A stretch of DNA of 64,000 bases, from contig JBCFYV010001001.1 in assembly GCA_039000515.1 (NCBI GenBank), forward strand, positions 4,391,993-4,455,992, in the 5' to 3' direction. Made by a program: the position numbers and the translations under genes. Positions 23,840 to 64,000 of this stretch are shown one piece after another (the stretch's first letter is position 1; every line of letters begins with the position of its first letter). The notes under the pieces were generated by a model. It searched no databases and was not told where the DNA came from. It saw only the letters and a program-made list of their open reading frames with translations. Origin of the DNA: Timema cristinae. Its lineage: Eukaryota; Arthropoda; Insecta; Phasmatodea; Timematidae.

Positions 23840-23865
23840 GGAAAATTCCACTTCTAGAACTTTCC
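23840..23865 (+). promoter_or_regulatory. Heat-shock element cluster
   Basis: TTC (23852), GAA (23857) and TTC (23862) at exact 5-bp steps form a perfect three-unit heat-shock factor site, CTTCTAGAACTTTCC. A further inverted pair GGAAAATTCC lies just upstream (GAA 23841, TTC 23846), offset by one base. Four or more alternating nGAAn units with a TATA box 22 bp further on is the arrangement of strong heat-inducible promoters. Chance occurrence of the whole set is unlikely. Confidence 0.85.
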
Positions 23866-23886
23866 ATGACGAGGACAAAGCTCGCC

Positions 23887-23894
23887 TATATAAG
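23887..23894 (+). promoter_or_regulatory. TATA box of the heat-shock promoter
   Basis: TATATAAG, 22 bp after the last heat-shock unit. Predicted start of transcription is about 23915-23925, within GC-richer sequence, followed by an A-rich leader (AAGACTAAACAAGTTGTGAA) like those of insect heat-shock mRNAs. Confidence 0.8.
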
Positions 23895-23968
23895 AGCTCT
23901 CCGCGTGACGTAGGGCCTCTGTTGGTGCTGGAAGAAAGACTAAACAAGTTGTGAAGAAAATTAGAATC

Positions 23969-24073
23969 ATGGTGTTGATTAATTTTTTATATCTAAAAAG
24001 TAATTGCATTAGTTTTAGGATTAAAATGTTAGTTTATTCAACTATATTCTTTGGTGACGAGGATAAGAAGTAA
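23969..24073 (+). CDS. Leader ORF of 34 codons behind the heat-shock promoter
   Basis: The first ATG after the predicted start site, in good context (A at -3, G at +4: AATCATGG). It runs MVLINFLYLKSNC... to DEDKK and stops at TAA 24071-24073. No similarity to heat-shock proteins. By position it is comparable to the 23-27-codon ORF-omega of Drosophila. Translation is unproven, and it could be chance. Confidence 0.35.
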   Translation: MVLINFLYLKSNCISFRIKMLVYSTIFFGDEDKK

Positions 24074-24145
24074 ACAAGAGGAAATATCAAACTTTTCAAC
24101 ATGTGAAGTTGCATCTAAGGCGTTGCACATTTCAAAGGTATTCAG

Positions 24146-24151
24146 GTACGA
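24146..24151 (+). other. Possible first splice donor
   Basis: CAG|GTACGA, about 225 bp after the predicted start site. A weaker alternative AAAG|GTATTC lies at 24138. Acceptor not identified. Confidence 0.35.
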
Positions 24152-25169
24152 TATGTTATAAGTTGGGTAATACATCTTGCTTATTTAGCACCTTAAAATA
24201 CCTATTTTCGATATCCTTACTATAGACGGAGATATTTCGCGATTGTTAATGCTATCTCAACTGGGTTTGTTTAAAGGTTATAGCCTATTTTCTGAAACAC
24301 GATAGCATTTATATTTATTCTAAAATATTTTCACACTAATAATATACAGGTTAAATAAATATTCACAAAATTAGCAGTTTTCTAAGTCGTTTATCGTAGA
24401 GTTAAATAAGTGTTATATAATTAAGGTTCATTATTTGACTACATTTATGCTTGTATAATCATTTAAGACTATGCAATTGCTTGAACATGTCAACAGAATC
24501 GATATTAAGTAGAATTACCTAATGCTTAAAATATAAGTACATAGTTTAAATTAACCTATAATCTTGTAAAACCTTGCTAAACGTAATAAAAACTGATCAC
24601 TGTTTTATATCGACGGAAAAAAACAAGCTAATATCTAGCTATTCAAAGGTCCAGCTTTAATTTCAGACAAATTATTTTGGTACTTTAATTTCAACTATTA
24701 ATAAAAACAATGCGAGTTAAAGTAGGCCAAACCAATATAAAATTCCCTTGCGTGACATTCTTCAATAGCCCTTAATTATAGAGTTAAGACCATTTGTGAC
24801 CAGTGACAGCTACACCAAAGTTACATCTACTCTTTATGTATTCACTGGCCTAACTAGACCTAGGCCTGATATGATTTGCATGCTCTTGTGTCACTTGGCA
24901 CTTTCACAATTTTTAGTGCCTTATTTCTAGAGTAAGAGGTAAACCTGCCAAAACGAGGGCTGTTCATGTCTTAACACAAGCAGTAATGCAGATATTTACA
25001 AATGAAAAACTTATTTGACTAAAATTACTAATTTGTGAGTTAAAAGCCTTCGATACAAGGCACTGTCCAGAGCAAGGGTCCTTTCACATCCTAGAGGGTG
25101 TCTTATTTTAACCTTTTGTGAAGTTCTGGTGTGTGCTGTTGAATATGTTGGTTTTTCTGCTATTTTAAA

Positions 25170-25830
25170 GAATCTCGCAGTAGGCCTAGCGAACTGCGTG
25201 CCCGCTGGAGACGAACATCTGGACGATTGCTGAAATTATGGTGGCATTAAGTTGGTAGTATCTAGTAGTAAGAAAGCTTAGCTACGATAAATAATTTGAT
25301 ACATCAATGATTCAAAATAATTGAGATAATATACAATTTGTTTGCCTCTAAAAATCTACTTTCAAAGATAATCTAAAAAGCTTAACCTACATGTAGAATA
25401 AAAGTAGGCTTATAATTGTTTAGGAATTCTCTAGTAAAAATATTTGGCACTAAACCTTCTTGCAAGATAATATTTTGCGCGAGGTAAATATTTGGATGGT
25501 TTAAATACAAGCTAAACTTTTCCCTTAAGAGGCTCAAAGTAAATTAAATTTTCCCTTAAGTTATTTTATAACACTTTTCATAAGTTGAGTTCACTGTACT
25601 AATGCAATTTTCCTTTATAATAAACATGTCAACAGATTCATCATGAGTTCCCTTACTAGAAGAAACGTATCAAATTCACTCGGATGTTATTCGTAAGCTT
25701 CACGTAGGGCTGTTGTAAATTGCGCAGCAGTATCCGAACTGATCGAAAGCTCCACTCCCTGTAGGGCTGTCATTCGTTCTTCGGCAGATTTGGTGTGTTT
25801 TTGGTGGTGACATTTATCTTAGTGGCAGTT
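25170..25830. other. Two small GC-richer islands inside the putative transcript
   Basis: 25175-25255 (GCGAACTGCGTGCCCGCTGG) and 25690-25810 (ATTGCGCAGCAGTATCCGAA, CACTCCCTGTAGGGCTGTCA) stand out from the AT-rich surroundings. Both ATTGCGCAGC and a GTAGGG-type word also occur around the heat-shock promoter (23.79-23.92 kb). They may be exons or alternative promoters. Confidence 0.3.
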
Positions 25831-28800
25831 TTGTGATATAAAATAAGGAAGACATCAATTAAATGATTATATGAAAGACTTGTTGGCTTAGGATATTTTG
25901 TAAATAATCTAGAATTAAATTAAATATTGCGTTGTATGTGATAAGACTTAAATTGTAGATATAAGTTTAGATTTAAGTTGAAGTGTAGATAACGTCCATG
26001 ATATGCAATAATTTTAAATTATCTCGATAAGTAATTTAACAAGACAATGCGAACCTGTCCATTTGAATGCCGTGCACATACACAATGTGTAATCCCATAG
26101 AACATTAACTTAAAACCTCAAAAGTACTGTGAACAAAATGTTTTTGTTACTTCTAATAGGCACTTGGTAAGGCTGACTTTATTTACAAGCTTTTTATCCA
26201 ACCCATTTCACTTATAAAACTGGCTATTTGGTTGCCTTTAGTTTGAACAAATCGGTTAGATACTTTGAGGCATTCATTTGGGGTTCTCAAATCTGTAAAA
26301 TTAAGACTCGAGTTTATTTGTTGGATAGGTAAACTGGTTTTCTGTTTTCAATATTATGTATGAATTTCACAATGAGAGTTAACTTGTATAAAAAAACTGG
26401 TGAGGCTGTTGTGATAATATTAAACAGACCGAATAAATAAACCTCATAAAATTATTTTGTTTTCGTGGTTTTTGTTATGTAAACCTTGTCATTCATATGT
26501 ATTTTTATATATATTCAGGTAATTCATTCTACACATTAACATGGCAAATATATTTGTCATCTTGGGGATAATCTCAACTATATATTTTTATCTATAAATC
26601 TGAATACCAAAGTAACATTCTTTAAAATGTCTTGAGTTAGGTAATACTTATATAATTGCTTAAGGAAGGATAGATTAAATCAAGTGGAAAATTTGATAGT
26701 CTTGAAGTGATTGGTTGTCATTCAAGAATAGGACTGGAAATTTACTTTTTAAACTTAACTTTTTTTAATGAATGTAATTTAAATTGAATGCCATTCCATA
26801 ATATTTAGGGGTTGGCTCATTTGAAATAGTTTTGGGAGATTGTGTTAATTTGACATGGCCCACTTTCATGTTAATATAAAATATGCAGATGTAGGACAAA
26901 TTATAAATCTACTTGATGTCTTTCAATAATAATGTGCATTATAAACTTAACTTAAAAAATATTTATCGTAAATCTCCAGTCATTTATTTTCTTAAAAAGA
27001 AATTCCATTTGGTTTCAGTGATGCTTATAAGTTAAGAAAGATCACAATGAATAAAATGTACGAGTACCCATGACTTTTGGTTTGTTTCCGACTATGAAAG
27101 TTAAACTAATATTTAGTTAACTGTTGGGTTCACTTAAAAACATTTACTTTTATGCTTGCATCATTGTTAGGGAAGAAAAGTACTTTTTTAATCTTTGGGA
27201 ATAGTGTGCAGTGAGGGTGGGATTCTATATTTATGTGGAAAATTATTATGAATTTAATATTCTCAAGCACTTGATACACACAATTAAACAAATTTCATAT
27301 TGTGAAAAAAATTTTGTCATTAATTCCAGAAAAATTGCCTGATTCGCGAGGAACATTACAATAGGCTATTTTGTCTGTCTTGATCTTAATTTCTATCAAA
27401 TTGTGTTACTTATTCATACATACCTGTATGAAAGGTTAGGTTACAGCCTGTTAGGATCTTTTTATTTAAAAAAGAAAATTTATGATAATAAAAATTTCTC
27501 TGAAGTGCTAGAAAACATTAAATTTTGATTAAATTCACACAAAAAAATGCTGGTCTCCGCTTCATTCTTGAATTTTTATGCCATTGGACAAAATGACTAT
27601 TACTTCAGGTACAATATTAGTTTTATTATCCTAAATACAGTATTCTCAAAGTTCTTATTAAATATTTGCCATGAGCATTTTGGTATTTGACCAGAAACGT
27701 TAGTTTAAGGAGAAAAATGCCTGGCCATGAAATTACTGTGTAGCAAGTTAAAAAAACTAAGTATATACTAGGTACTTTACATTTGTAAAAAAACATCTGA
27801 GATTTAACAAATTTTCTTGTATTACAATTCAAAATGAGAAAGTATTTATGGGTTGTATTATTTTCAGTATGGCTTAAACTAGCAAAGCATTTATTCTAGT
27901 TGAAAATGTTCATGCAAAACAGGTTGGTTCATAAAATATAAATTTATTATCCGCTCTTGTGTAATGGAAGTTACTTTAGGGAGTAGGGTTAGTGTGCCTG
28001 CCCATCTTGCTGAAACCTTATTTTGAGAATATATTAGTTTAACTGGAAGGGGTAGGATATTGATTGAACCTAACTAAACAAGAGTTGGATATTCTAAGAT
28101 TAGGATAGTTAAAAATGTGGGTATAACTACTGGTGTGTGTCAACGACTGAAATCTCCTAGAGGAAAGATTGAAACAAATATCTCGTATTTGCTGAACCAC
28201 TTACATTGAAGAAATATTGAAGGTATGTTTGAAAATGTTTGTACTTAAATTGATTTGCTGTTGTGTTATTTGATAAATACTGAGGGGGAGTGAGATTGTT
28301 CCTACAGATCCATTTTTGACTCATTCCATGGCTAAAAATATTTTATAAACATGCTGGCAAGCTTGAAACTTGTGATAATACTAAATTAAGTTAAGTTTGA
28401 GAACAACGGTAAATGAAAGGTAATTTAAGAATACATACAACCAACACTAGTGTGTCAAATCACATGGTTAAGCTAAGCTATACAATAGTTGACATCACAG
28501 TGTCTCGCATGTCATGTCTGGCTTTGCCCAAGTTTTGTTGCGTTAATTGTCTTTTTTCCCCCTCAGTATACTGAGGATGAAGCGACCAATTACCCAGTGT
28601 TATAATTAACAAAAATACAATACATTCTATTCTTACACGACCTTGTACCCATCAAAAATGATTTTCAATTTTCTACATTATTAAGTTTGTACCCAAGCCC
28701 TGATTTGTTTATACGCTAATTTTTTTCCCCATTTTACCAAGTGTTTTACCCTAAACCTTATATTTGTAAAATTTATTTTAGTGTGAAAACTGTAAATATA

Positions 28801-30500
28801 TGTTATAAATTTGGGCAAGTGTGTAATGTTTTTCTATCAACAAAATTAGTTAACGATGTGTTTCTTCGCTAATATTGGCATAAGTAATGTCCCCTTCAGC
28901 CCCATCACGTTATTGTTTACTCATCCTTTTATTCTACTTGTTGCCTTAAACAGATTGCAACAGTTTAGAACATACTAACCCTTTACACATTTTTTAAATA
29001 GACTTACTAAAACAAATTAAAAACTATCTATCCAGAACTTGTGGGATGTATAAATAGGCCTTATGAAACAGCCTTAAGAACACTTGAGAAAGACTTTTGA
29101 TAACTCAAGATTGGTTAGTCTGCTACACATTATGTATGCATCATTAAACCTTTGAAAAATTTGTTTACGGACATATTTGAGCATAATTTATTTTTCCTAG
29201 CACTGCATTTATTTTCATACCTGTTCAGGTTATATATAACTGGATAATATTATTTAAGTTGATATTTTATTATAAACTTGTTAATTAGGTACATATTTAT
29301 TCTGTAGCATATTTGATCAACCCGTTTTTATGACTTGTGTTTAGACCTATCTACAACAGGTTTAACAATATTAATCAACCTCACAGAACCTAACCTTCAA
29401 ATTGATAAGTACATGCAATGTTAAGCTTTGTCTGGAAGAAGTAGTGTTTGTCAAAGAAGTGGTTAAAGTGAGAACTAAATTCTATCTCTTAAATGAATTA
29501 TAAAAAAAGGCCGCAAATCGCCTTGGCTGAAAACTATTGAACAATTATCAAATATGTCCAAAGTTAGGCCTAATACTAATTGAGAGGACCTGGACAGATT
29601 TGTCAAGTCATTTACCGAACATACTTCAATATTATGCTGCCCATTTTTGAGTTTAACTTGTATGATGGTATTCCTGTGGGTGTCAAAATTGTAACTAGTG
29701 GACACATTGTGGTCAGACGAAAGTTGAGAAATTTAAAGGTATGTTAGCCACCTTTTTTTTTTTCTCAATTTTCCTACACTTAGTTACTTCTATTATTGGC
29801 TAATTTAATCATCAATAGTTAGCTTGATAACTTTAGTAAACTTCTTGCACAACTGAGAATATTTTAATATCAGTTTGGATGAGCATGTGGAGTATTGGTA
29901 AACATTACCTGAAATCATCCCCTCCCTCAACATACATTTTTTCTTGCAAATGGGAAATCATTCCGTTAGGGTTTTATATGTAGTCTATTCCACAACAGGT
30001 TTTAGTTTTGCATTCAATGTCAAATATATGTTGCTAACAACTTTTTCTTATTCATATTAGACAACTCTTTCTGGAAGGGGGTGTGGAGACATAATTTTTT
30101 TATTCATATTAGTAAAAAAAAATGGCTATAGTAGTTTTGCGCTCCTTGAGTGGCTCCTTTATAATCTCACACATTTTCAGCTTTATCACTCACTGGGAAG
30201 TTCTAAAATTCTATAGTTGGATGTGTACATACATATACATTACTTTTAATAAATATATTAAATTAAATTATTTAGTCAAAATTATCTGAAACTGACCTAG
30301 AATTAATGATTAATGTGTCTGTTTGTGCTTTCACTCCTAGGGGGTGCCCAATCTTGAACAGTATTTGGACTGAAGTTTTGTTAAGCACTTTTCCATGCAA
30401 ATTCTGTTTATTTTTACCTCTGTGCTTTCACCATGGCAACATTTTTATACTCATTTTACATATCCTATTTTGAGCAAAATAGGTTTTCACATTGTGCAAC
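25831..30500. other. AT-rich, no gene recognised
   Basis: No frame over about 75 codons, no RNA gene signature and no repeat ends seen on either strand. Confidence 0.5.
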
Positions 30501-30507
30501 AGTTTAA

Positions 30508-30521
30508 GGGGGGGGGGGGGG
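30508..30521. repeat. Poly(G) run of 14
   Basis: Uninterrupted G14 on the plus strand in AT-rich DNA. A second run of 16 G lies at 31645-31660 and one of 10 at 45583-45592. Confidence 0.95.
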
Positions 30522-30889
30522 CTCTTTGTCAGAAATTGTCTTGCGGATGTCTGCTCATTCTTAATTTGTCAAACAAGTGATTTTTTAAATCATTATAAAA
30601 ATTAAGGTGTTAGGCCTTATCTATGAAAATTACTTTCTGTTCTAAGGCTCACAAATGATAAATTATGAAGAAAAAAAAATTATCTGGTTAAATTTATCCT
30701 CTAAAGCACAAACTGGTACAAAATTGTTTTAAAATGTTAAAATGCCAAATTTAATTTGCGTTGCAATCACCAGTTTATCTGAATGAGCAATTGTCATATA
30801 AGTTTTGAGTATCAAGCGCTTAAAACACATGGTTCCACTTTGTACAGCCCGGGTGTGAGCAATTTTAAAATAGCTAGCTCCAGGAGAAA

Positions 30890-32320
30890 ATAAATGGTAC
30901 AGAACTCTGCTTTTCGCTCTTATTGTTTGAAAATTGAGATATTTACTTAAAACTCTAATATATGTGAAAAGAAATAATATACACTAGCAAACCCAAGCAT
31001 AAATTGCAATATACTTAGTAAAACTTTTTTCTTTTGAGTTATAAACAACACTTGGTATTAAAATCTCAACTCTGCTATAAAAAAAATTCACATTTTATTA
31101 GCTGTTGCAATTCTTTCATCGCATTGCTATTAAATTCCTCATTTATAAATTTTGACCAATAAAAATTTAAATATTGATTACTGAGTCTAAAATTGATATA
31201 AATCATTGTACAAACATTTCTATGAGGTTTATGGAAAAACAAACCTTTAGAGACTGACTTTATATTACTCTATGGCATTGGAGAATTATTGTGTTAAAAA
31301 CTTTAATATCTCTTTACAACTAAAGCTCATAAAATTGTATTTTGCCAATTATCTCTGAAACTGTTGGATTTATAAAAATATATTTCATATAAAAGTTTAT
31401 TTTTAATAGTACTAACATTTTGCATTAGTAGGTTATTTAGTTTCTCAAATAGTTGTCGAGATATGGAAGTTTCTGCCTTTGTAAAGTACCCTAAAATTCA
31501 TATTCATGGTGAAATGAAAATAGCCAGTTTATTTATAATCTTAATAAACACCTAGATAGGATTTTAATCTAAATCGTTGATTTTGAGAAAATCAATTTTC
31601 TCTTTTCGCCCTTTAACTATTGCAAAGACCACTTTTTAGAGTGTGGGGGGGGGGGGGGGGTCTTTAGACATTATTGATATTTCAGGTTAGATTATCTTTT
31701 GCGGTGACAATATTTTTACTCTTTGCTTTCGGAAAGTTAAAAATTAAAAATATGTATTTACGTATAGCTTGAAAGTTATTGGTTTTATAAAAATATGCTT
31801 ATAAAATATTTGTATTATTGAGACCTACATATTTGTAAGAATAAGCAATTTCATATCAAAAATTCTTTAAGAGATTAAAAAAAAGATAATTTACGCATCA
31901 GACTAATGCCCTTAAGTTATTTTTCCAAAATATTGGGAGAAGCCATTTTGTTTGGAATATTTAGAAATGTTTAGAAATGAAATTTAATCAAAATCGCTTA
32001 AACCAATTTATAGAAAAATTGACTTTTTTGCCCTTCAGTAAACCACCCTTATTTTAAGGGTTGGATATCAATTTTAAAAAAAACTCTGGGCAACCCAATG
32101 AAAACCCTAACCAAGTTTTACCCTGATAAGTAAAATAGTTTAGGCTCTAGTTGGAGGTACAGACAGATGGACGAAAAGTCAAAAACTATTTTTTATTTAT
32201 TTGGAGGGCAGGGGGGTCATGAAACCAAGATTCATCAAAATCTTCCGATCACAATACTTCCTCTACCTGTAAGATACCGAGAAAGTAATAACACAGCATT
32301 AGTGTGGCTACCAAATAGTC
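30890..32320. repeat. Probable interspersed repeat, type unknown
   Basis: Contains the phrases ACAGACAGATGGACGAAAAG and GATTCATCAAAATCTTCCG, which I associate with a repeat common in insect genomes. No ends or coding frames seen. Confidence 0.35.
31645..31660. repeat. Poly(G) run of 16
   Basis: Uninterrupted G16. Length is likely to be unstable and error-prone in sequencing. Confidence 0.95.
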
Positions 32321-32817
32321 ATCTCTGGTTTTAGGTAACATTCAGCTACAGTGAACCTAATTCATTGGTTCCAACAGGTTATACGCACCCAACCCATATA
32401 AATTTCAATGTGTGTTAAAAATTTTTTTTTATAATTAACCCTAAAGGTTGATAGAAAACAAAACCCCTGATAACACTAAACCGAATAATTATATGATCTT
32501 ATTACATGCCAAGTTCCTGATTCTATATTACTATACTATATACATATAGACTTTTTTCATGATTCCCTGAAACCGAAAAAGTGGATTTTGAATGTCTGGA
32601 CTAGAGCAGAAACCATCTTATATCTTTGTTAACTATTTTGACTTTAAAACCATTGATTTATAATAGAAGCAGAATGTTTACTATTCTAAATAATTTTAAA
32701 TATGTAATACAATATTTTAACTCTTTAAACATAATATAAGATTAAAATAACAAAACAATAGTAAGACATTAAATCAAGTAGACTAGTGTTGAGAAAATTT
32801 AATCAACCAATTTTAAG

Positions 32818-33243
32818 CTGCATTGCTTGAAATTTCTTAAATGATGGAATTAGACTCCCTTTTTAAACATCTTCCTGTGCAATACTATGCACAATTTGAC
32901 AAGCTAATGCTTTTACATACCTCCCTAGAATGTATTATAAATTTGTATAAGACATAACATTTTTAAGGTGTTAATGTTCTTAAATAACTGCAAAACACTT
33001 CTTTTTCAAAGTCAATGACTCTGTGTGGTTCTGCATTGCTTGAAATTTCTTAAAGATGGAATTAGACTCCCTTTTTAAACATCTTCCTGTGCAATACTAT
33101 GCACAATTTGACAAGCTAATGCTTTTACATACCTCCCTAGAATGTATTATAAATTTGTATAAGACATAACATTTTTAAGGTGTTAATGTTCTTAAATAAC
33201 TGCACAACACTTCTTTTTCAAAGTCAATGACTCTGTGTGGTTC
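32818..33243. repeat. 213-bp direct tandem duplication
   Basis: 32818-33030 and 33031-33243 are nearly identical, each beginning CTGCATTGCTTGAAATTTC and ending near GACTCTGTGTGGTTC. A few small differences separate them (AAATGATGG/AAAGATGG; AAAACACTT/ACAACACTT). Recent duplication. Confidence 0.95.
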
Positions 33244-33872
33244 ATCATTTAGTCACATAAAAATTCATTATTATATGTGAACATTCCAATTATATAATCT
33301 CGGGTAGATGATCCCATGAAGTGATAAGTATGTAATAATGTTACACACTGTAGAACTAACAATAGGATGAAATAACTTATATTTTCTGTATAAGGTTATA
33401 AGCAAATCATTTTAAAAGAAAAAAAAATTAGCTAACAAAGACCAAAAATAGTAATTTTTTATGAAGTTTTTTACAAATTTATTTCAGTTAAGAATACTTA
33501 TACATATTTTGTATTACATGGTTTACCAGGAACTTTATAAATGTATACCAAGTCTGTTCCAAAATGAAGTACACCAATGTGGCCCAAAAATGTTTGCCGC
33601 TTGAATAAGGTGTATTATTAGTATGAAATAAATATACATTTAAATTAACAACATAGATACTTTGTAAAAAAATAATGAAGACTTAACTATGCCATTTGTA
33701 CCTACAGAGATATTATACTGCCCTCTTAAGTTCTTATAATTATAATACACTTTTCTAACCCAATAGGACTTTAATAATGTGCATCAATGCAGGTCTTGTT
33801 GATCATAATATCAATGCAGGTGTTGTGCTACTATATTAAATCCACAGAACATAAGATATTCTACCTACCCAA

Positions 33873-34345
33873 CCATACAGGACTTATGGTACTCTACGTG
33901 CCCTCGCAGGTCTTATGGTACTCTATGTGCCCTTGCAGGTCATATGGTACACTACTGCCCTCGCAGGTCTTATGGTACACTACTGCCCTCGCAGGTCTTA
34001 TGGTACACTACTGCCCTCGCAGGTCTTATGGTACTCTCCCATGCCCTCGCAGGTCTTATGGTACTCTACGTGCCCTTGCAGGTCTTATGGTACTCTACTG
34101 CCCTCGCAGGTCTTATGGTACACTACGTGCCCTCGCAGGTCTTATTGTACTCTACGTGCCCTCGCAGGTCTTATGGTACTCTACTGCCCTCGCAGGTCTT
34201 ATGGTACTCTATGTGCCTCGCAGGTCTTATGGTCCTCTACGTGCCCTCGCAGGTCTTATGGTACTCTACGTGCCCTCGCAGGTCTTATGGTACCCAACTA
34301 CTATCACAATCCAGATTCTTATGGTACAACTTTGCTAGTCTTATT
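33873..34345. repeat. 26-32-bp minisatellite, ~17 copies (array block 1)
   Basis: Unit core GCAGGTCTTATGGTAC followed by TCTACGTGCCCTC or a shortened spacer. All three plus-strand frames stay open for over 140 codons because the unit lacks stops. This is a by-product of the repeat and not a gene. First block of the large array downstream of the heat-shock promoter. Confidence 0.95.
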
Positions 34346-34930
34346 GTAAAATTCAAATGTCATGTCTATTTACAGTAATTCAAGTTTTGGAACATCTGTG
34401 CGCTTAATCTCATATTCGAGGACTATACCACCCCTTAAGTAATTTTAATTATTAGAGTGATCACTTCCCTGTTTAACCTCCCGTAGACCCAAGGTCCAAT
34501 TTAATAACGTGCTAGAAGTTTTGCGTACTTACGTCCCCTGAGTTAAAGACAACGGGAGGTTTTTTATGATGGACTCAAGTACATGATCTTATTAAAGTTA
34601 GATGGACAATTTCTTGCCTCCTGAAGGTTATGGTACATAATGGTAACTCAGTATGCATCTTATGGTATTATACTACTAACATGATTTCACCCTAAAATAT
34701 ATTACATCAATATGTTCCAGAGAGTTTATAGATTTTGAGGACTAATAAAAATATGCTAAACTTGTAAAAATACTAAATTCATCAATACAATGAAAAACAC
34801 TAATGACTTCAAATAATCAACAAAATAAATTTTATTCGCAGTATACATACTAATAAATGATAGTTGCTAACTAAAGTAAAAGTTTAAGCTGATATTATTT
34901 ATATATTTTTTTAGTTAGGCACAAATCTTA
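34346..34930. other. Spacer between arrays
   Basis: AT-rich, with isolated array-like words (GGTTATGGTACATAATGG, CATCTTATGGTATTAT). An inverted AACCTCCCGT/ACGGGAGGTT pair occurs at 34478-34487 and 34552-34561. Confidence 0.5.
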
Positions 34931-35770
34931 TTGTGTCATCCCACTTAATAATTATGTATTGATAGCACTTCCCCTTCACAAAAATGTCTACCAATATTGC
35001 TTTTTTTATTTATGTGTCATCCCACTTAAAAAATTGTTTGATAGCACTCCCCCTCACAAAATGTACTCCAATATTGCTTTTTTTTTATTGTCATCCACTT
35101 AAAAAATTATGTTTGATAGCACTTCCCCTCACAAAATATCTACCAATACTGCTTTTTTATTATTGTGTTATCCCACTTAAAAATTTGTTTGATAGCACTC
35201 CCCCTCACAAAATGTCTACCGAATATTGCTTTTTTATTTGTGTCATCCCACTTAAAAAATTGTGTTGATAGCACTTCCCCCTCACAAAATGTTACCAATA
35301 TTGCTTTTTTATTTATTGTCATCCACTTAAAAAAAATGTGTGTTGATCAGCACTTCCCCTCACAAAATGCTGACCAATAACCATGTTTTGTTTTTATTGT
35401 CACCCACTTAAAAAATTTGTTTAAATATTAATACTTACAACCTACAAAATTTAAGAATATTGCTTTTTTATTTGTGTTATCCCACTTAAAAAATGTTGTG
35501 TTGACAGCACTTCCCCCTCACAAAATATCTACCAATACTGCTTTTTTTATTGTGTCATCCCACTTAAAAAATTGTGTTGATAGCACTTCCCCCTCACAAA
35601 ATGTATACTGAATATTGCTTTTTTTTTATTGTCATCCACTTAAAAAAATTGTGTTGATAGCACTTCTCCCTCACAAAATATCTACCAAATATTGCTTTTT
35701 TTATTGTGTCATCCCACTTAAAAAAATGTGTTGATAGCACTTCCCCTTCACAAAATGCTGACAGATTAAT
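34930..35770. repeat. ~75-bp tandem repeat, ~11 copies
   Basis: Unit has GTCATCCCACTTAAAAAATT, then GATAGCACTTCCCCCTCAC, AAAATGTCTACCAATATTGC and a T-run. One copy near 35400-35460 is badly eroded. It is unrelated to the 29-bp monomer. Small frames on both strands are repeat artefacts. Confidence 0.95.
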
Positions 35771-38385: not shown

Positions 38386-38850
38386 TAGATACCCACGGTT
38401 GTGATAATTTAGGTACCCATGGAGTTATTGTGATAATATATGTACCGACGAAGTTGTGATAATTTAGGAACCCAGGGAGTTGTGATAATCTAGGTACCCA
38501 CGAAGTAGTTGTGATAATCTAGGTACCCATGAAGTAGTTGTGATAATCTAGGTACCCACGAAGTAGTTGTGATAATCTAGGTACCCACGAAGTAGTTGTG
38601 ATAATCTAGGTACTCACGAAGTAGTTGTGATAATCTAGGTACTCACGAAGTAGTTGTGATAATGTAGGGTACCCACGACAGTTGTGATAATCTAGGTATC
38701 CACGAAGTAGTTGTGATAATGTAGGTACTCATGAAGTAGTTGTGATAATGTAGGTACTCACGAAGTAGTTGTGATAATGTAGGTACTCACGAAGTAGTTG
38801 TGATAATTTAGGTACTCACGAAGTAGTTGTGATAATCTATGTACACACTC
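38386..38850. repeat. Homogenised 29-bp block, ~15 copies (array block 2)
   Basis: Unit GTTGTGATAATCTAGGTACC plus CACGAAGTA. Copies differ mainly by CCC/CTC and TCTAG/TGTAG changes. It ends at GTACACACTCAAGTTTTAAA, exactly as block 3 does at 45.45 kb. Confidence 0.93.

Positions 38851-39364: not shown

Positions 39365-39365
<1 letters not shown>

Positions 39366-39402
<37 letters not shown>
39366..39402. repeat. (TA)n microsatellite
   Basis: About 18 TA units directly upstream of the hAT-like element's target site. Confidence 0.95.
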
Positions 39403-53200: not shown

Positions 53201-56200
53201 GTCAATAATAAACTAATGATAACCTACCTATCATCTCTACTTTCATACTTAGGTATTTTCGTATTATTTTAACCATTCAGTTTCTATTAAAATCAAAAGT
53301 TTACACTAAAATATTTTAGAAATCTACGTGCCCAAATACTTTCCCCCCAAGTATTTTAATAGTCTACGTTCCCATTGAGGTATTTTAAAAAATCTACGTA
53401 AATATTCAAATACTATTATAATCACGTCCCAACTAAATTTTTTTAAACAAAGTCCATATTCTACTATTTCCCCCAGATTTATTTTAAAGTGTACTTTCCC
53501 ACTGAGGTATTTTTGATAATCTAATAACCACCAAAATACTATTAAACTACGGCCCATGAAGTATTAAGAAATCTTCGTACCCCAAACTACATTACCTAGG
53601 GAAAATTTTTTATAGGCTATGAAACCATTCGATTCTATGATAAACTACTTATTCACTTAAAAATTAGGATAATCTACGAACCCAAAAAATTTCATGAAAA
53701 TCGTACCTATCACTATGCCACAAGTATTTAATGTCTACGTTCCACAAAGGTATTTTAATAACAACGTAACCTTAGATATTTGTAACCTACGTCCCCACTA
53801 TACTTTCCCCAGAGGTTTTTAAAAAATTTACGTTCCCCTGAAATATTTCATTTAAACTACGTACTATTAAGTTAATATTATATTCTACGTTTTCCCCTGA
53901 TGATATGATAATCTTCGTAACAATCCGCATTCCCCTAGAGGTACTTTGATTTAGTATTCACAAATTAAGATTAGTCAACGTACTACATAATTTATGATAA
54001 TCTACTTACCAATCTACTTTTCCCCAGAATATTTTAATTGTCTACGTCCCCATAAGGTATTTAATAATCTACGCCAAAATTTAAAATTTGTGATAATCTA
54101 GTCCCCCATTCTACTTTCCCCCAATTTATTTTAATAGTTCGTTTTAAAATTAGGTTTTTTTTGTAATCTACGTGCCCACTGAAGTTTAAGATAATCTTCG
54201 TACCCCACTACATTACTATAGGGAATTTTTTATAGGGCTAGAAATCTTCAAATTCTAGAAATCTCGAACCAACTAAAATTTCTAAGTTTACGTAAAAAAT
54301 CAACTATGCCACAACTATTTTAATGTCTACGTTCCCAAAAAGGTATTTTTATAATCTCGTAACCATTTCAGATACTATTTAATTACGTACCCATGAAATT
54401 TATGTAATTAACGTACCCACTCACTTTCCACAGGGTTTTTTGATAGTTTACTTAAACATTCAGTTTCTATTCATATTACGTATTAAAAAAAATATTTAGT
54501 AATCTACGTTTCCCTATTCTTTCCCCCACAAGTATTTTTAAATTGCTACTTCCCATAGAGCTATTTAAAATCTACCGTAAACATTTAAATACTTTAGATC
54601 TACGTACCAACTAAAGTTATGTTAATTACGTCCACATTCTACTTTCCCACAGATTTATTTTAATAGTGTCGTTCCCACTGGGTATTTTGATAATCAAGAA
54701 AACCCACCGATAGTATTATAATATACGACCCACAGAAGTATTAAGTAATTTCGTACCCACACTACATTACCAAGGGATATTTTTATAGGCTATGAAACCA
54801 TTCAAATTCTATTAAAATCTACGAACCAACTAAAATATCATGTAGTTTAGTCCCCAATCAACTATCCAAACTATTTTAATAGTCTCGTTCCCCAAAGGTT
54901 TTTTTTTAATCACTAACCATTCAGATACTATTTTTAACACGAAAATACTGAAGGAATGATAATTCGTCCAACTCTATTTTCCCACAAATGTATTTTCATA
55001 TCTACTTAAAATTCATTTCTATTCATTCTACTTTTTTCCTAAAATTTTAGATAATTTTACTTCCCTATTACTTTCCCCCAAAGTATTTAATAGTCTACTT
55101 TCCCCAAAGAGGTATTTAATTAATCTACGTGAAACTTTTCAAATACTATTATAATCTAGTACCAAAAAAGGGTTTTAAGATAATCTACCCACATTTCTTT
55201 CCCGCTTTTTTTTTAATAGTTACGTTCCCCATGAGGTTATTTTGAAATCTAAGTAACCCCAGATAGTATTATAATATACGTACCACAGAAGTATTAATAA
55301 TCTTCTACCCAAAAATTTTACAAACCATGGGGTAATTTTTTAGGCTATGAAACCATTCAATTTTATGATAATTATTATTCACTTAAAAATTAGAAAAATT
55401 TTGACCAAATGAATTTCATGATATTTACGTACCCAATGAACTATGCCACAATATTTTAATAGTCACGTTCCCACAAAGGTATTTTTTATAACTACGACCC
55501 ACTGAAATTTATGATAATCTACGTCCCCTCTACTTTGTCAAGGGGAGGTTATTTTGATAGTCTAGTAATCATTCAGGTTCTATGTTTTTCTGCGAATCAC
55601 TTTTAAATATTATGGAATCTACGTACAAACCTTAGGTTTAAATCTTCCACCCACAAAGATAATATAAAAATGTATGTACCGACCCAAGGATATATAAAAC
55701 TTTCCCACATAGTTATTTTGATAGTGTACTTTTCCTCAAAGGTATTTTGATAATCTCGTAAATTTATATAAATTATTATCTACGTAATAATGAAACTAAT
55801 GATAAACCTCCTACATCTCTTCTTAACATAGGTTTTTCGTATCTTTTTAAAAACCAATTTTTCAGTTTCTATTAAAATCTACGTATTCAAAAAAATTTAT
55901 TTAGATAATCTAGGCCCTAAATATTTCCCCCACAATATTTTAAGTCTACTTTTCCCATTGAGGTATTTTTAAAAAATCACGTAAATATTCAAAACTATTA
56001 TAATCTACGTACCAACAAATTTTTATGATAATCTACGCCATATTCTACTTCCCACAATTTATTTTAATAGTGTACTTTCCCACTGGGTATTTTGATAATC
56101 TAAGTAACCATCAGATATTAAATCTAGGCCCATGAAGTATTAAATAATCTTCGTACCCACACAATTCCATAGGGATATTTTTATGGGGCTATGAAACCAT

Positions 56201-59200
56201 TCAGATTTTTAGATAATCACTTATTCACTTAAAATTAGGATAATCTACGAACCAACTAAATTTCATGATAAATACGTACCTAATCTATTATCCCACAAGT
56301 ATTTTAATAGTCTAAGTTCCCACAAAGGTATCTTTTAATTTTCGTACCCACTGAAATTTATGATAATTACGTAACCCACTCTACTTTGTCACAGAAGTTT
56401 TTGAAAGTCTACGTAATCATTCAGGTTCTATGTTTTTCTCGAATTCACATTAAATTTAGGGTAATCACGTCAAACCTTAGGATTTATCTTTCCTACCCAC
56501 AAAATAATATAAAAAGTATGTACCGACTCAAGGATATATAAAACTTTCCCACATAGTTATTTTGATAGTGTACGTTCACAAAGGTATTTGATATTTTACG
56601 TCTATTCAATAATATTATAATCTAACGCAATAATGAAACTAATATAACCTACCTATCATCTCTACTTTATAATAGGATTTTCGTATCTATTTAACCATTC
56701 AGTTTTATTAAAATTACGTATTCACTAAAATTTTAGATAATCTAGTGCCCAAATACTTTCCCCCACAAGTATTTTAATAGTCAAACTTCCCTTTGGGAGG
56801 TTTTTTTAAAAAATCCGTAAATTTTTCAATACTTTTTAAAAATCTACGTACCAATAAAGTTTATGATAATTACTCCATATTCAAACTTTCCCAAAATTTT
56901 TATTTTAATAGTGACTTTCCCACTGAGGTATTTTGATAATCTAAGTAACCACTCAGATACAAATTATAATTACGTGCCACTGAAGTATTAAGAAAATCTT
57001 CGTACCCACACTAATTACCATAGGGATATTTTTATAGCTATGAAACCATTAGATTCTATGTAATCTACTTATTCATTAAAAATTAGGAAAAATCTCCACC
57101 AACAAATTTCATGATAAATACGTACCTAATCTACTATGCCACAAGTTTTTAATGTCTACGTTCCCACAAAGGTATTTTAATAATCAAAAGTCACCATTCA
57201 GATACTATTGTAACCTAGTCCCACTATATTTCCCACAAGGGTATTTAAATGATTTACTTCCCACTGAAATTTTTTTAAAAATCACGTACTATTCAATTAA
57301 TATTATATTTACTAACCACTGATTATATGAAAAACTTCGTACCCCTACTCATTCCCCTAGAGGTACTTTGATGTCTATTTTAGGTTAGTCAAACGTAAAA
57401 ACTATATTTATGATAATTTTACTACCCAATCTACTTTACAACAGAAGTTTTTTAATATTCCCCACGTTAACACAGAGTTATTTTGACACAATGAAGTGTT
57501 GAAAATCAAACGATAACCTACGACCCACTAAAGTTTCTCAATAGGTATTTTGATAGTCACTTATTCACTGAAATAATTGTTTAATCTACACTAAAATTTT
57601 GTGATATTTCGTGACCAATTTACTTTCCTTCAGAATAGATAAGTCTACGTCCCAAAAGGTATTTTAATAAACTCGTAGCCATAAGTCCGTTCCCACAAAG
57701 GTAAAGTTTGTGTATCTACGTGCCCAATCTCTTTCCTTCAGAAGTAGTAGTCTACGTTCCCAAAAGGTATTTTAAAAAAACAAGTAACCATAATCTACTT
57801 CCCACAAAGGTATTTTAATATCAACGTAACCATTTCAGATATTTTGTAACCTACGTCCCCACTAAAACTTCCCACAGAGGTTTTTAAAAATTTTTCGTTC
57901 CACTGAAATTTTTTCTAATCTACGTTTTATTAAGTTAAAAATTATATTCTATTCCCACTGAGTTTATGAAACCCCGTACCCACTCCGCATTCCCCTAGAG
58001 GTACTTTGAATTTATGTATTACTAAATTATTGGGTTATCAACGTACTACTATAATTTAGATAATCTACTTACCAATCTACTTTTACACAGAAGTATTTTA
58101 ATAGTCTACGTCCCTAGAGGTATTTAAATTTTAGTACCAATTAAAGTTTGTGAAATTACGTCCCCATTCTACTTTCCCAAGATTTATTTTAATAGTGAAA
58201 ACGTTTTCATTTAGGTATTTGATAACTACGTACCCATGAAGTATTAAGATAATTTCGTACCCACCTACATTATATAGGGAATTTTTATAGGCTATGAAAC
58301 CATTCAAATTCTATATAAATCTACGAACCAACAAAATTTCATGATAGTTTAGTAACCAATCAACTATGCCACAACTATTTAATAGTCTCGTTCCAAAAAA
58401 GGTTTTTTTTAATCTACGTAACCATTCAGATACTATTATAATTACGTACCCACTGAAATTTATGATAACTACGTACCCACTCACTTACCACAGATATTTT
58501 GAAGTCAACTTAAAATTCAGTTTCTTTTTCATATCTAGATTCCTAAAAAATTTAAAAAATCTACGTACCCTATCTATTTCCCCCAAAACATATTTTAATT
58601 GTCTACGTTCCCATAGAGCTATTTAATAATCTACGTATCTACGTAAACATTTAAATACTATTATGATCTCGTTACCAACTAAATTTATAAAATCACGTCC
58701 ACCTACTTTTCCCCCAAGATTTTTTTTAAATAGTGTAGTTCCCACTGAGGTATTTTGATAATTAAATAACCACTTAATAGTATTATAAATACGTACCCAC
58801 AGAATATTATGATAATCTTCGTACCCACACTACGTACCAAGGGAAATTTTTATGTCTTGAAACCTTTTCAGATTCTATATAATCTACTTATTCACTTAAA
58901 AATTAGGATAATCACGAACCAACTAAATTTTCATGATAAATAGTACCTAATCTACTATGCCACAATATTTTAATGCCCTAACGTTCCCAAAAGGTATTTT
59001 AATAATTACGTCACCATTCAATACTATTGTAACCTACGTACCCACAATATTTTCCCCCAAAAGGGTTTTTAATAATTTACTTTCCCCACTGAAAAATTTT
59101 TCATAATCTACGCACTATTCAGATAATTCATATTTAACGAAAACCACGATGTATTATGATAATTTCGACCCACTCTCTTTCCCCCTAGGGGTACTTTGAC

Positions 59201-60300
59201 AGCTATTATTTGGTTATCTACGACAATAATATATGATAATTACGTACCAACTACTTTACCACGAAGTATTTTATATTCCACGTTACACAGAGGTATTTTG
59301 GGCACAATGAAGTAGTAGATATCAAACAAACCTACGTACCCATTAAAGTTTCCCAAATTGTTTTTGATAGTTACTTATTCATGAAATAATGTTAATCTAT
59401 GTACTAACTAAAGTTTGGATATTCTACGTGCCCAATTTACTTTCCTCAGAATTATATAATCTACGTTCCCAAAAGGTATTTTAATAAACTACTAACCAAA
59501 ATCTACTTCCCACAAAGGTAAAGTTTGTGATATTCTACGTGCCCAATCTATTTCCTTCAGAGTATTATAATCTAAATTCCCAAAAGGTATTTTAATAAAC
59601 TACGAAAAAAGTTACGTCCCACAAGGATTTTTAATAATCACGTAACCTTCAGATACATTGTAACCTACTTTCCCACTAACTTTCCCACAGAGGTGTTTAA
59701 TAATTTACGTTCCCACTGAAATTTTCATAATCTACGTACATTAAGTTAATATTATATTCTAAGTTCCCCCTGAGTATTAGAAAATCTTCGTACCAACTCC
59801 GATTCCCCTAGAGGTACTTTGATAGTTTATGTATTCACTAAATTATTAGGTTAAGTAAAGTACTCTATAATTTATGATAATCTACTTACCATCTACTTTT
59901 CCACAGAAGTATTTTTTAAAGTCTACGTCCCCATTCTACTTTCCCCCCCAGATTTATTTTAATAGTGGGCGTTTTCACTTCGGTATTTTAAATAAATTAC
60001 GTAACCCTCGATTCTATTAAATCCCCACTACCCACGAACATTAAGATAATCTTCGTACCCACATACATACCATAGGAATTTTTAATAGGCATGAAACCAT
60101 TCAAATTCTTTATAATCTACGAACCAACTAAATTTCATGATAGTTTACGTATCCCAATCAACTTTGCCACAACTATTTTAATAGTTACGTTCCCAAAAAG
60201 TTTTTTTTAATTACGTAACCATTCAGATACTATTATAATCTACGTAAATACTGAAGGAATGATAATCTAGTACCAACTCTATTTTCCCACAAATGTATTT
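47200..60300. repeat. ~2.6-kb higher-order repeat region, indel-ridden
   Basis: Same monomers as 60.3-64 kb (TTCCCACAAAGGTATTTT, GAAACCATTCAGATTCTA, AAAAATTAGGATAATCTACG). Many single-base and short deletions and inserted A, T or C runs occur; 47.2-48.9 kb is worst. Anchor TATGTACCGAC..AAGGATATATA falls near 53.09, 55.67 and 56.52 kb. No genes; open frames here are chance. Confidence 0.85.
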
Positions 60301-63300
60301 TCATTGTCTACTTAAACATTCAGTTTCTATTCTATCTCGTTTTCACTAAATATTTAGTAATTACGTTCCCTATCTACTTTCCCCCACAAGTATTTTAATA
60401 GTCTACGTTCCCAAGAAGGTATTTAATAATCTTACTGTGAAACATTCAAATACTATTATAATCTACGTACCAACTAAGGTTTATGATAATCTACGTCCAC
60501 ATTCTACTTTCCCACAGTTTATTTTAATAGTGTACGTTCCCACTGAGGTATTTTGATAATTAAGTAACCACTCAGATAGTATTATATTATACGTACCCAC
60601 AGAAGTATTAAGATAATCTTCGTACCCACAATACATTACCATAGGGATTTTTTATGGCTAGAAACCTTAGATTTTAGATAATCTCTTATTCACTTAAAAA
60701 TTAGTAATCTATGAAACCAACTGAATTTCATGATAATTTACGTACCCAATGAACTATGCCACAATATTTTTTTTTAGTCTAAGTTCCCACAAAGGTATTC
60801 TTATAATCTACGTACCCACTGAAATTTATGATAATCTACGTACCCACTCTACTTTGTCACAGAAGTATTTTGAAAGTCTACGTAATCATTCAGGTTCTAT
60901 GTTTTTCTGCGAATTCACATTAAATATTATGGTAATCTACGTACAAACCTTAGGATTATCTCTACCCACAAAAATAATAAAAAATGTATGTACCGATCAA
61001 GGATATATAAAACTTTCCCACATAGTTATTTTGATAGTGTACGTTCCTACAAAGGTATTTTGATAATCTACGTAAACTATTCATATAATATTATAATCTA
61101 CGTCAATAATGAAACTAATGATAACCTACCTATACATCTCTACTTTCATACATAGGTATTTTCGTAGTCTATTTAACCATTCAGTTTCTATTAAAAATCT
61201 ACGTATTCACTAAAATATTTAGATAATCTACGTGCCCTAAATACTTTCCCCCACAAGTATTTTAATAGTCTACGTTCCCATTGAGGTATTTTAAAAAATC
61301 TACGTAAATATTCAAATACTATTATAATCTACGTACCAACTAAAGTTTTATGATAATCTACGTCCATATTCTACTTTCCCACAGATTTTTTAATTGTGTA
61401 CTTTCCCACTGAGGTATTTTGATAATCTAAGTAACCACTCAGATACTATTATAATCTACGTGCCCACTGAAGTATTAGATAATTTCGTACCCACACTACA
61501 TTACCTATAGGGATATTTTTATGGCTATGAAACCATTCAGATTCTATGATAATCTACTTATTCACTTAAAAATTAGGTAATTACGTACCAACTAAATTTC
61601 ATGATAAATACGTACCTTAATCTACTATTGCCACAAGTATTTTAATGTCTACGTTCCCACAAAGGTATTTTTAATAATCAACGTAACCATTCAGATACTA
61701 TTGTAACCTACGTCCCCACTATACTTTCCCACAGAGGTTTTTAATAATTTACGTTCCCACTGAAATATTTCATAATCTACGTACTATTAGTTAATATTAT
61801 ATTCTACGTTCCCACTGATGTATTATGATAATCTTCGTACCCACTCCCGCATTCCCCTAGAGGTACTTTGTAGTTTTATGTATTCACTAAATTATTAGGT
61901 TAGTCAACGTACTACTATAATTTATGATTAATCTACTTACCAATTACTTTTCCACAGAAGTATTTTAATAGTTAGTCCCCATAGAGGTATTTAAATAATT
62001 ACGTACCAATTAAAGTTTTGATAATCTAACGTCCCCATTCTACTTTCCTACAGATTTATTTTAATAGTGTACGTTTTCATTAGGTATTTTGATAATCTAC
62101 GTGCCCACTGAAGTATTAAGATAATCTTCGTACCCACACTAATTACTATAGGGATATTTTTATAGGCTATGAAACCATTCAAATTCTATGATAATCTCGA
62201 ACCAACTAAATTTCATGATAGTTTACGTAACCAATCAACTATGCCACAACTATTTTAATAGTCTACGTTCCCAAAAAGGTATTTTTATAATCTACGTAAC
62301 CATTCAGATACTATTATAATCTACGTACCCACTGAAATTTATGATAATCTACGTACCCACTCTCTTTACCACAGAGGTATTTTGATAGTCTACTTAAACA
62401 TTCAGTTTCTATTCATATCTACGTATTCACTAAAATATTTAGATAATCTACGTACCCTATCTACTTTCCCCCACAAGTATTTTTTTGTCTACGTTCCCAT
62501 AGAGCTATTTAATAATCTACTAAACATTTAAATACTATTATGATCTACGTACCAACTAAAGTTTATGATAATTACGTCCACATTCTACTTTCCCACAGAT
62601 TTATTTTAATAGTGTACGTCCCTCTGAGGTATTTTGATAATCTAAGTAAACCACTCAGATAGTTTATAATATACGTACCCACAGAAGTATTAAGATAATC
62701 TTCGTACCCACACTACATTACCATAGGGATATTTTTATAGGCTATGAAACCATTCAAATTCTATTATAATCTACGAACCAACTAAATTTCATGATAGTTT
62801 ACGTACCCAATCAACTATGCCACAACTATTTTAATAGTCTACGTTCCCACAAAGGTATTTTTTTTAATCTACGTAACCATTCAGATTGTATTATAATCTA
62901 CGTAAATACTGAAGGAATGATAATCTACGTACCAACTCTATTTTCCCAAATGTATTTTCATAGTCTACTTAAACATCAGTTTCTATTCATATCTACGTTT
63001 TCCCACTAAAATATTTAGATAATTTACGTTCCCTATCTACTTTCCCCCCACAAAATATTTTAATAGTCTACGTTCCCAAGAGGTATTTAATAATCTACGT
63101 GAACATTCAAATACTATTATTAATCTACGTACCAACTAAGGTTTATGATAATCTAACGTCACATTCTACTTTCCCACAGATTTATTTTAATAGTGTACGT
63201 TCCCACTGAGGTATTTTGATAATCTAAAATAACCACTCGATAGTATTATATATACGTACCCACAGAAGTATTAAGATAATCTTCGTCCCACAATACATTA

Positions 63301-64000
63301 CCATGAGGGATATTTTTATAGGCTATGAAACCATTCAGATTTTATGATAATCTACTTATTCACTTAAAAATTAGAATAATCTATGAACCAACTGAATTTC
63401 ATGATAATTTACGTACCAATGAACTATGCAAAAGTATTTTAATAGTCTTCGTTCCCACAAAGGTATTTTTATAATCTACGTACCCACTGAAATTTATGAT
63501 AATCTACGTACCCACTCTACTTTGTCACAGGAGGTATTTTGATAGTCTACGTAATCATTCAGGTTCTATTGTTTTTTCTGCGAATTCACATTAAATATTT
63601 GGTAATTTACGTACAAAACTATCTTCCTACCCACAAAGATAATATAAAAATGTATGTACCGACTCAAGGATATATAAAAATTTACCCACATAGTTATTTT
63701 GATAGTGTACGTTCCTAAAAAGGGTATTTTGATAATCTACGTAACTATTCATATAATATTATAATCTACGTCAATAATGAAACTAATGATAACCTACCTT
63801 CATCTCTACTTTCATACATAGGTATTTTCGTAGTCTATTTAACCATTCAGTTTCTATTAAAATCTACGTATTCACTAAAATATTTAGATAATCTACGTCC
63901 CTAATACTTTCCCCACAAAGTTTTTAATAGTCTACGTTCCCTTTGAGGTATTTTAAAAAATCTACGTAAATATTCAAATACTATTTAATCTACGTACCAA
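60300..64000. repeat. Clean ~2.67-kb higher-order repeat, runs off the window
   Basis: Anchor TGTATGTACC at 60985 and 63651, a period of 2,666 bp. Neighbouring text (ACTTTGTCACAG, TAATCATTCAGGTTCTATG, ATAATGAAACTAATGATAAC) keeps register. Each unit consists of many 25-35-bp monomers sharing ATAATCTACGTACCCAC. Confidence 0.92.

What the first reader, a model, noticed from the sequence alone, without database searches (positions are those of the whole stretch)
23840..64000. Heat-shock promoter leading into a giant non-coding satellite: candidate hsr-omega-like lncRNA locus
Seen: a multi-unit heat-shock element, TATA box and A-rich leader on the plus strand, a 34-codon ORF, ~10 kb without coding exons, then ~30 kb of tandem repeats. 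Known: Drosophila hsr-omega has this order and its repeat-containing nuclear RNA organises omega speckles; human satellite III is likewise transcribed under HSF1. Inference: this is an independent or highly diverged stress-inducible satellite RNA gene. hsr-omega-like loci are, to my knowledge, described mainly in Diptera.
Basis: partly seen in the sequence, partly recalled or inferred. Interest (0 to 1): 0.88.

Follow-up and report, generated by a model that had tools for sequence, protein, structure and literature searches.

The report
Stick-insect heat-shock satellite RNA locus
A genome from a Timema-like stick insect has a heat-shock-type promoter motif 10 kb upstream of a long one-directional tandem-repeat array whose exact core sequence was found nowhere else in the assembly; this layout resembles the fruit-fly stress-RNA gene hsr-omega and would likely make a giant heat-induced noncoding RNA, though no transcript has been examined.

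Summary
A perfect three-unit heat-shock element (23852-23864), TATATAAG (23887), a first-ATG 34-codon ORF (23969-24073), 10 kb without detected coding sequence, and a 29-bp-unit satellite from 33.85 kb are present. The genome is from a Timema-like stick insect, not a fly. New evidence: (i) the promoter has the layout of one of this genome's hsp70 promoters and sits in a CpG-preserved island in a CpG-depleted genome; (ii) the array runs past the window to an assembly gap at 101.5 kb; (iii) all 37 exact copies of the array core in 1.29 Gb lie at this locus, so this core is private to it, as hsr-omega repeats are and human satellite III is not; (iv) no HSP70 or HSP90 match lies on this chromosome, and no coding exon was detected in the 10 kb (short exons could be missed). 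Not shown: any transcript, heat induction, read-through into the array, or function. Against: the HSE-TATA pair is not enriched genome-wide, the spacer is 10 kb, and homology to hsr-omega was not tested. Best reading: an independent hsr-omega-like locus, plausible but unproven. A centromere satellite is the main structural rival.

The parts
23300..24500 (.). CpG-preserved island (CpG o/e 1.04) around the promoter in a CpG-depleted background (mean 0.44)
   Evidence: 0.9% of 1378 overlapping background 1.2-kb windows reach this value, boundaries chosen after looking; by CpG count in 300-bp windows the region ranks only in the top 2-8%; hsp70 controls
23841..23864 (+). heat-shock element: GAAaaTTC, then TTCtaGAActTTC (three perfect contiguous units)
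23887..23894 (+). TATA box TATATAAG; predicted transcription start about 23918
   Evidence: HSE-to-TATA layout as in the host hsp70 gene of L022
23969..24073 (+). 34-codon ORF at the first ATG of the predicted leader (context AGAATCATGG)
   Evidence: coding status not testable here
24146..24147 (+). best-scoring predicted splice donor in the first 2 kb (CAG|GTACGA)
   Evidence: matrix typed from general knowledge; prediction only
24500..33849 (+). spacer without detected coding exons; CpG o/e 0.40
33850..45461 (+). proximal, diverged and patchy part of the 29-bp-unit array with CpG to TpG/CpA decay (sub-arrays 33878-34293, 38375-38848, 43001-45461)
46000..64000 (+). distal array within the window (core ATAATCTACGTACCCAC); with its continuation to 72.6 kb it has CpG o/e 1.10, and it resumes at 91.0 kb up to an assembly gap at 101.47 kb

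Best explanation
This locus is likely an independently evolved, hsr-omega-like stress RNA gene in a Timema-type stick insect: the promoter motif at 23.84-23.92 kb is predicted to be switched on by heat-shock factor and would drive a long noncoding RNA that reads into the satellite. Shown by sequence: an HSE and TATA in the layout of a host hsp70 promoter, a CpG-preserved island around them, no detected coding exon for 10 kb, and a one-direction array of 29-bp units whose exact core was found only here. Inferred: HSF-driven transcription on the plus strand, possible splicing of a short 5' exon carrying the 34-codon ORF (as in the spliced cytoplasmic hsr-omega RNA), read-through into the array, nuclear retention, and use of the hundreds of unit copies as a multivalent scaffold that holds RNA-binding proteins during stress.
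For: HSE and TATA present. The host hsp70 gene in L022 has TTCTAGAA 32 bp upstream of TATATAAGAG; here TTCTAGAA is 35 bp upstream of TATATAAGAG. The CpG island (o/e 1.04 against a mean of 0.44) matches the upstream stretches of both hsp70 genes read, 1.35 and 1.03. No coding signal on the plus strand 23.9-33.8 kb: best codon score 11.5, simulated 95% 9.8 and maximum 12.8 of 100, against 26.5-105.4 for the 7 control exons of 123-160 codons printed; no Pfam match at E up to 1. At E below 0.01 unit hits are on the plus strand up to the gap, and 663 sites within 4 mismatches of the core were used. Exact core: 37 of 37 genome-wide matches at this locus, reversed control 0; with 2 mismatches of an 18-mer 250 of 272 here, 22 elsewhere against 11 for the reversed control. 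The distal array keeps its CpG (265 of 413 units CG, 19 TG or CA, 85 CT), as expected of germline-unmethylated DNA. One 401-nt array piece folds far less stably than its shuffles (z +5.6), compatible with an open protein-binding RNA; a second piece does not show this (z -0.9).
Against: No RNA evidence at all. The HSE-TATA pair is not enriched genome-wide (18 against 49 for the reversed control), so the motif alone could be chance. The five units are not in one register and a contiguous five-unit score missed the site. The spacer has 14 AATAAA and 22 ATTAAA on the plus strand, any of which could end the transcript. The codon test would miss short exons: control exons of 56 and 68 codons score only 11.9 and 16.7, and the controls are the training exons themselves. 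The minus strand of the same spacer scores 19.0. The spacer and proximal array look methylated while the distal array does not, so promoter and distal array are not one continuous CpG-preserved domain. No convincing exon 2 was predicted.
Confidence: 0.42

Rival explanations
1. The promoter is real and heat-responsive but drives a separate transcript (a short lncRNA, or a gene whose coding exons were not detected) that ends before the satellite; the array is a passive neighbour.
For: 10-kb spacer with many poly(A) hexamers; a usable donor at 24146; the CpG island ends at about 26 kb; exons under about 70 codons could be missed.
Against: No coding signal found in 10 kb; no HSP70 or HSP90 match on this chromosome (0 of 38; 0 of 14); the satellite's core is private to this locus. 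Small HSP (not completed), DnaJ and ubiquitin families were not tested, and 90-147 kb and beyond 204 kb were not scanned for domains.
Confidence: 0.3
2. The HSE-TATA arrangement is a chance motif, the island belongs to some other regulatory element, and the satellite is simply a local tandem expansion.
For: Genome-wide the motif pair is rarer than its reversed control; the contiguous five-unit scan missed it.
Against: Motif, hsp70-like spacing and CpG island coincide at one point; about 0.0009 strict sites are expected per 64 kb at the genome-wide rate.
Confidence: 0.17
3. The array is a chromosome-specific centromere or pericentromere repeat, which Timema is known to have.
For: PMC11691646 (outline with abstract, and sections 8, 14, 23 and 24 read) reports CenH3-bound tandem repeats specific to single chromosomes or groups of chromosomes in Timema douglasi, in 28 families. 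Here the core is private to one chromosome, 4.4 Mb from a scaffold end.
Against: The dominant families in that paper have motifs of 63-384 bp or AACCT; here the unit is 29 bp (with higher-order periods near 99 and 127) and there is no (AACCT)3 within 264 kb, though (AACCT)2 occurs at 4 places outside the array. The array lies next to a CpG-preserved promoter-like island and between protein-domain matches, RGS upstream and IFT80/172 downstream. The paper's tables of minor families were not available to me.
Confidence: 0.08

Closest known systems
Drosophila hsr-omega (93D) stress lncRNA gene
   Same: Heat-shock-type promoter, short ORF near the 5' end, no detected protein gene, single-orientation tandem repeats downstream, repeat core at one locus (fly facts from passages of PMC9865238, PMC9530788 and PMC8069800).
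   Different: Unit 29 bp against 280 bp; array span about 49 kb as assembled against 5-15 kb; 10-kb spacer; 34 codons against 23-27; recalled nonamer ATAGGTAGG absent on the plus strand; stick insect, not fly; no homology tested; no RNA data.
Human satellite III / nuclear stress body RNA
   Same: A satellite that would be transcribed under HSF in stress.
   Different: SatIII is on several chromosomes, and putative HSEs within its repeats are mentioned as an unpublished observation (passages of PMC9530788 and PMC9032817); here the exact core is at one locus and no perfect three-unit HSE lies in the array.
TCAST1 satellite of Tribolium
   Same: Insect satellite linked to heat stress (PMC4537270, search listing with the start of the abstract only).
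   Different: TCAST1 is the major pericentromeric satellite; this core is private to one locus beside a heat-shock-type promoter.
Timema chromosome-specific centromere repeats
   Same: Chromosome-restricted tandem repeats in the same genus (PMC11691646).
   Different: Dominant families have other unit lengths or are AACCT; CenH3 binding untested here.

Membership tests
hsr-omega | Heat-shock-inducible promoter | tested here: inconclusive
   HSE and TATA in the layout of a host hsp70 gene; induction itself not testable with these tools
hsr-omega | Short ORF near the 5' end | tested here: met
   34-codon ORF at the first ATG of the predicted leader; the fly ORF is 23-27 aa (PMC9865238 passage). 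An ORF of this length is not rare by chance
hsr-omega | No protein-coding gene in the unit | tested here: inconclusive
   Nothing detected in the 10-kb spacer, but exons under about 70 codons could be missed
hsr-omega | Two exons, one intron, then repeats | tested here: inconclusive
   Donor at 24146 predicted; of 14 acceptor-like sites 3 lie in the spacer, the nearest at 25788 and the best at 28567, and 11 are array units
hsr-omega | Same-orientation tandem repeats downstream | tested here: met
   unit and spacing differ from the fly's
hsr-omega | Repeats confined to one locus | tested here: met
   37 of 37 exact core matches here; 250 of 272 with up to 2 mismatches, 22 elsewhere against 11 in the control. 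The proximal sub-arrays were not tested (tool busy)
hsr-omega | Nonamer ATAGGTAGG in the repeats (recalled, no call gave it) | tested here: not met
   0 on the plus strand of the regions counted; 6 on the minus strand of 46-72.6 kb
hsr-omega | Nuclear RNA in omega speckles with hnRNPs | not testable with these tools
   no RNA or imaging data
hsr-omega | Sequence or synteny homology with the fly gene | not tested
   no fly sequence or other insect genome was on hand
Human satellite III | Arrays on several chromosomes | tested here: not met
   exact core on one chromosome only
Timema centromere repeats | CenH3-bound repeat, dominant families AACCT or 63-384 bp | tested here: inconclusive
   29-bp unit, no (AACCT)3; CenH3 binding not testable

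The most novel reading that the evidence does not exclude
Stick insects have an independently evolved counterpart of hsr-omega: one HSF-driven gene whose product is a giant noncoding RNA built from a satellite found nowhere else in the genome, scaffolding a stress body in a lineage where the literature searches here listed none. Stress satellite RNA would then have arisen at least three times: in flies, in primates and in stick insects.
Probability: 0.35. Interest if true: 0.88.

Novelty: new variant of a known kind. Interest (0 to 1): 0.68.

Why it matters
Omega speckles are described as observed only in D. melanogaster and not thoroughly examined elsewhere, and nuclear stress bodies as limited to primates (PMC9530788, passages). 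A locus with the same layout in a polyneopteran insect would show whether cells repeatedly evolve repeat-built stress RNAs, and it makes the question directly testable: one promoter, one private probe sequence, and a genus with public genome and CenH3 ChIP data. The private, CpG-preserved satellite is also unusual in its own right.

Tried and rejected
Rejected: an HSP70 or HSP90 gene from this promoter (no coding signal, no match on this chromosome). Rejected: a satellite core shared across chromosomes. Rejected: real inverted halves of the array. The contig at 101,571-136,273 lies between two N gaps and is an inverted, indel-rich copy of 67.3-97.8 kb (93.9% overall with 1002 gap openings; 11 of 20 blocks have at least 99% identity in ungapped columns), most likely a duplicate or allelic contig; I do not count it as array length.

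Led nowhere: Rfam and ARAGORN on the window (nothing); contiguous five-unit HSE score; acceptor scan; poly(A), donor and nonamer counts in the array, where for example strong donors GGTA[AG]G are 0 on the plus strand of 46-72.6 kb against 8.1 expected and 22 on the minus strand, because repeat copies are not independent; RNA folding gave opposite signs in two pieces; a protein search with the array ORF at 33809-34375 gave no hit at E 0.001 among 1191 candidates.

Literature: eight searches (open-licence PMC only). The titles and abstract openings listed showed no heat-induced satellite or lncRNA in Timema, but only 15 of 22,615 (any two terms), 10 of 22 and 10 of 24 were listed, so this is no proof of absence. 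Read by passages only: PMC9530788, PMC9865238, PMC9032817, PMC8069800. PMC11691646: outline with abstract, and sections 8, 14, 23, 24.
Full report
WHAT GENOME. The window is G000:C1001:4391993-4455992 of a 1.29-Gb, 7605-contig assembly. An Hsp70-14 protein read from this genome (504 aa) matches Timema genevievae at 99% identity over 69% of the query and T. bartmani at 84% over 54%, with the stick insects Bacillus rossius and Dryococelus next at 65-66% over the full length. I therefore call the source a Timema-like stick insect; the species is not settled.

THE PROMOTER. At 23841-23864 lie GAAaaTTC and, after three bases, TTCtaGAActTTC; at 23887 TATATAAG. Perfect three-unit HSEs occur at only two places between -40 and 147 kb, and only this one has a TATA box behind it. 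The strict pair occurs 18 times in the genome (about 0.0009 per 64 kb), while the reversed control occurs 49 times, so the pair is not enriched and motif evidence alone is weak. A contiguous five-unit score also missed the site. Two further observations make the promoter credible. First, the hsp70 gene in L022 has TTCTAGAA 32 bases upstream of TATATAAGAG, against 35 bases here; the second hsp70 gene (L023) has an imperfect HSE and TTTATAAG and was not flagged by the script; the fetched HSP90 pieces showed no comparable promoter, but they may not reach it. Second, the surrounding region is CpG-depleted (mean o/e 0.44 in 139 1-kb windows, TpG/CpA 1.15) but 23.3-24.5 kb has 1.04, reached by 0.9% of 1378 overlapping background windows (boundaries chosen after looking). 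By CpG count in 300-bp windows the region ranks only in the top 2-8%. Both hsp70 genes show the same island upstream (1.35 and 1.03). In the same call the other stretches were lower: L026 0.78, L039 and L040 0.64, HSP90 L044 0.92 and L045 0.08-0.51, but their promoters may lie outside the fetched pieces.

WHAT THE PROMOTER COULD DRIVE. The first ATG of the predicted leader opens a 34-codon ORF; in AT-rich DNA such a run is not rare, so it is no evidence of coding. The strongest donor in the first 2 kb is at 24146, just after that ORF, but acceptors in the spacer are few, the nearest at 25788, and most acceptor-like sites are array units. No Pfam domain was found on the plus strand at 23.9-33.9 kb (3 frames, E up to 1), in the 10 translations covering 14-24 kb on both strands and 24-34 kb in one plus and three minus frames (E up to 0.01), or at 1-14 kb on either strand apart from a reverse transcriptase at E 0.0064. 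Codon scoring trained on 22 host chaperone exons gives a best plus-strand score of 11.5 in the spacer, near the edge of 100 simulations (95% 9.8, maximum 12.8); the minus strand reaches 19.0 and 1-23.5 kb 21.2. Of the 15 shortest control exons printed (the training exons themselves), those of 56 and 68 codons score 11.9 and 16.7, those of 81-96 codons 22.4-61.2, and those of 123-160 codons 26.5-105.4; the 164-194 kb region reaches 57.9. A long coding exon in the spacer is thus unlikely; a short one could be missed. Downstream on the plus strand, 147-194 kb holds reverse transcriptases and IFT80/172-type and WD40 matches and 194-204 kb nothing; 90-147 kb and beyond 204 kb were not scanned. HSP70 (38 matches) and HSP90 (14 matches) have none on this chromosome; small HSP, DnaJ and ubiquitin were not tested.

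THE SATELLITE. A unit profile finds weak but tandem copies from 33.85 kb and, at E below 0.01, plus-strand hits to 72.6 kb and from 91 kb to the assembly gap at 101.47 kb; upstream to -40 kb there is one hit at E 4.2. The two spans add up to about 49 kb, not all of it recognisable repeat. Periods are 29 bp with higher orders near 99 and 127, and 2,787 in the 91-101.5 kb part. The 72.6-91 kb interval is an insertion with dUTPase-like (E 6.8e-5) and type-B DNA-polymerase-like (E 0.0032) matches in the 74-90 kb scanned, perhaps a Maverick/Polinton-type element (inference). Most important, the exact core ATAATCTACGTACCCAC occurs 37 times in the whole genome, all 37 at this locus (22 forward before the gap, 15 reverse in the misplaced contig), reversed control 0; my own count of the locus also gives 22 forward. 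Two mismatches of an 18-mer give 272, of which 250 are here by my own count, leaving 22 elsewhere against 11 for the reversed control; the 10 outside hits that the truncated list shows are single sites. The core is a weak detector of the proximal sub-arrays (0 exact copies at 43-45.5 kb, 1 at 33.8-43 kb), whose privacy was not tested because the tool stayed busy. The core is thus confined to one locus, the feature that separates hsr-omega from satellite III in the reviews seen by passages (PMC9530788, PMC9032817).

A CpG BOUNDARY INSIDE THE ARRAY. In the proximal array the central CG of the unit has decayed (33.8-43 kb: 14 CG against 24 TG and 16 CA of 83; 43-45.5 kb: 1 CG against 67 TG of 74). 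In the distal array it has not (46-72.6 kb: 265 CG, 19 TG or CA, 85 CT of 413; 91-101.5 kb: 119 CG, 4 TG, 27 CT of 172). Because distal copies have diverged, recent amplification alone is not an obvious explanation; a long-standing absence of germline methylation is the simple reading (inference). It also means the promoter island and the distal array are separate CpG-preserved domains, which neither proves nor excludes one transcript.

MECHANISM. Shown: motif, island, spacer without detected exons, one-way array with a private core. Inferred: HSF-driven plus-strand RNA, read-through into the array, nuclear retention, and a scaffold for RNA-binding proteins as described for hsr-omega. I give 0.42 to a heat-driven RNA that includes the array, 0.30 to a real promoter with a transcript that ends before it, 0.17 to a chance motif, and 0.08 to a centromere repeat. 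The last is a serious rival because Timema douglasi has chromosome-specific centromere repeats (PMC11691646), but the dominant families there have other units or the telomeric AACCT, of which no run of three is present within 264 kb.

VERDICT. As a system it is a new variant of a known kind (an hsr-omega-like layout), not a demonstrated member of that family.

Noticed in passing
window 45,461-46,000 and array on both sides: Sharp change inside the satellite from CpG-decayed proximal units to CpG-intact distal units.
   Followed up: partly
72.6-91.0 kb in window coordinates (L002 end, L003, L004 start): Insertion inside the array with dUTPase-like and type-B DNA-polymerase-like matches and CpG o/e of 0.6-1.4.
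   Followed up: partly
101,571-136,273 in window coordinates (L005-L009): Contig between two N gaps, an inverted indel-rich copy of 67.3-97.8 kb: probable duplicate or allelic contig in the scaffold.
   Followed up: yes
window 33,778-34,378: The first sub-array (29 bp x 14.5) is open in all three plus frames for about 480 bases; one frame had no protein relative.
   Followed up: partly
46-72.6 kb, minus strand: Six copies of ATAGGTAGG, the recalled fly hsr-omega nonamer, on the strand opposite to the promoter.
   Followed up: no
window 9501-9870: Separate tandem array, 40-bp unit, 9 copies; several interspersed repeat families at 3.7-16.3 kb.
   Followed up: no
window 13947-13959: A second perfect three-unit HSE without a TATA box behind it.
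   Followed up: no
-13.9 to -13.0 kb upstream (L013): Another CpG-preserved island (o/e 1.25); an RGS domain match lies somewhere within -20 to 0 kb.
   Followed up: no
whole genome: 55 COX1 matches, most as fragments outside the one full-length copy, read as nuclear copies of mitochondrial DNA.
   Followed up: no
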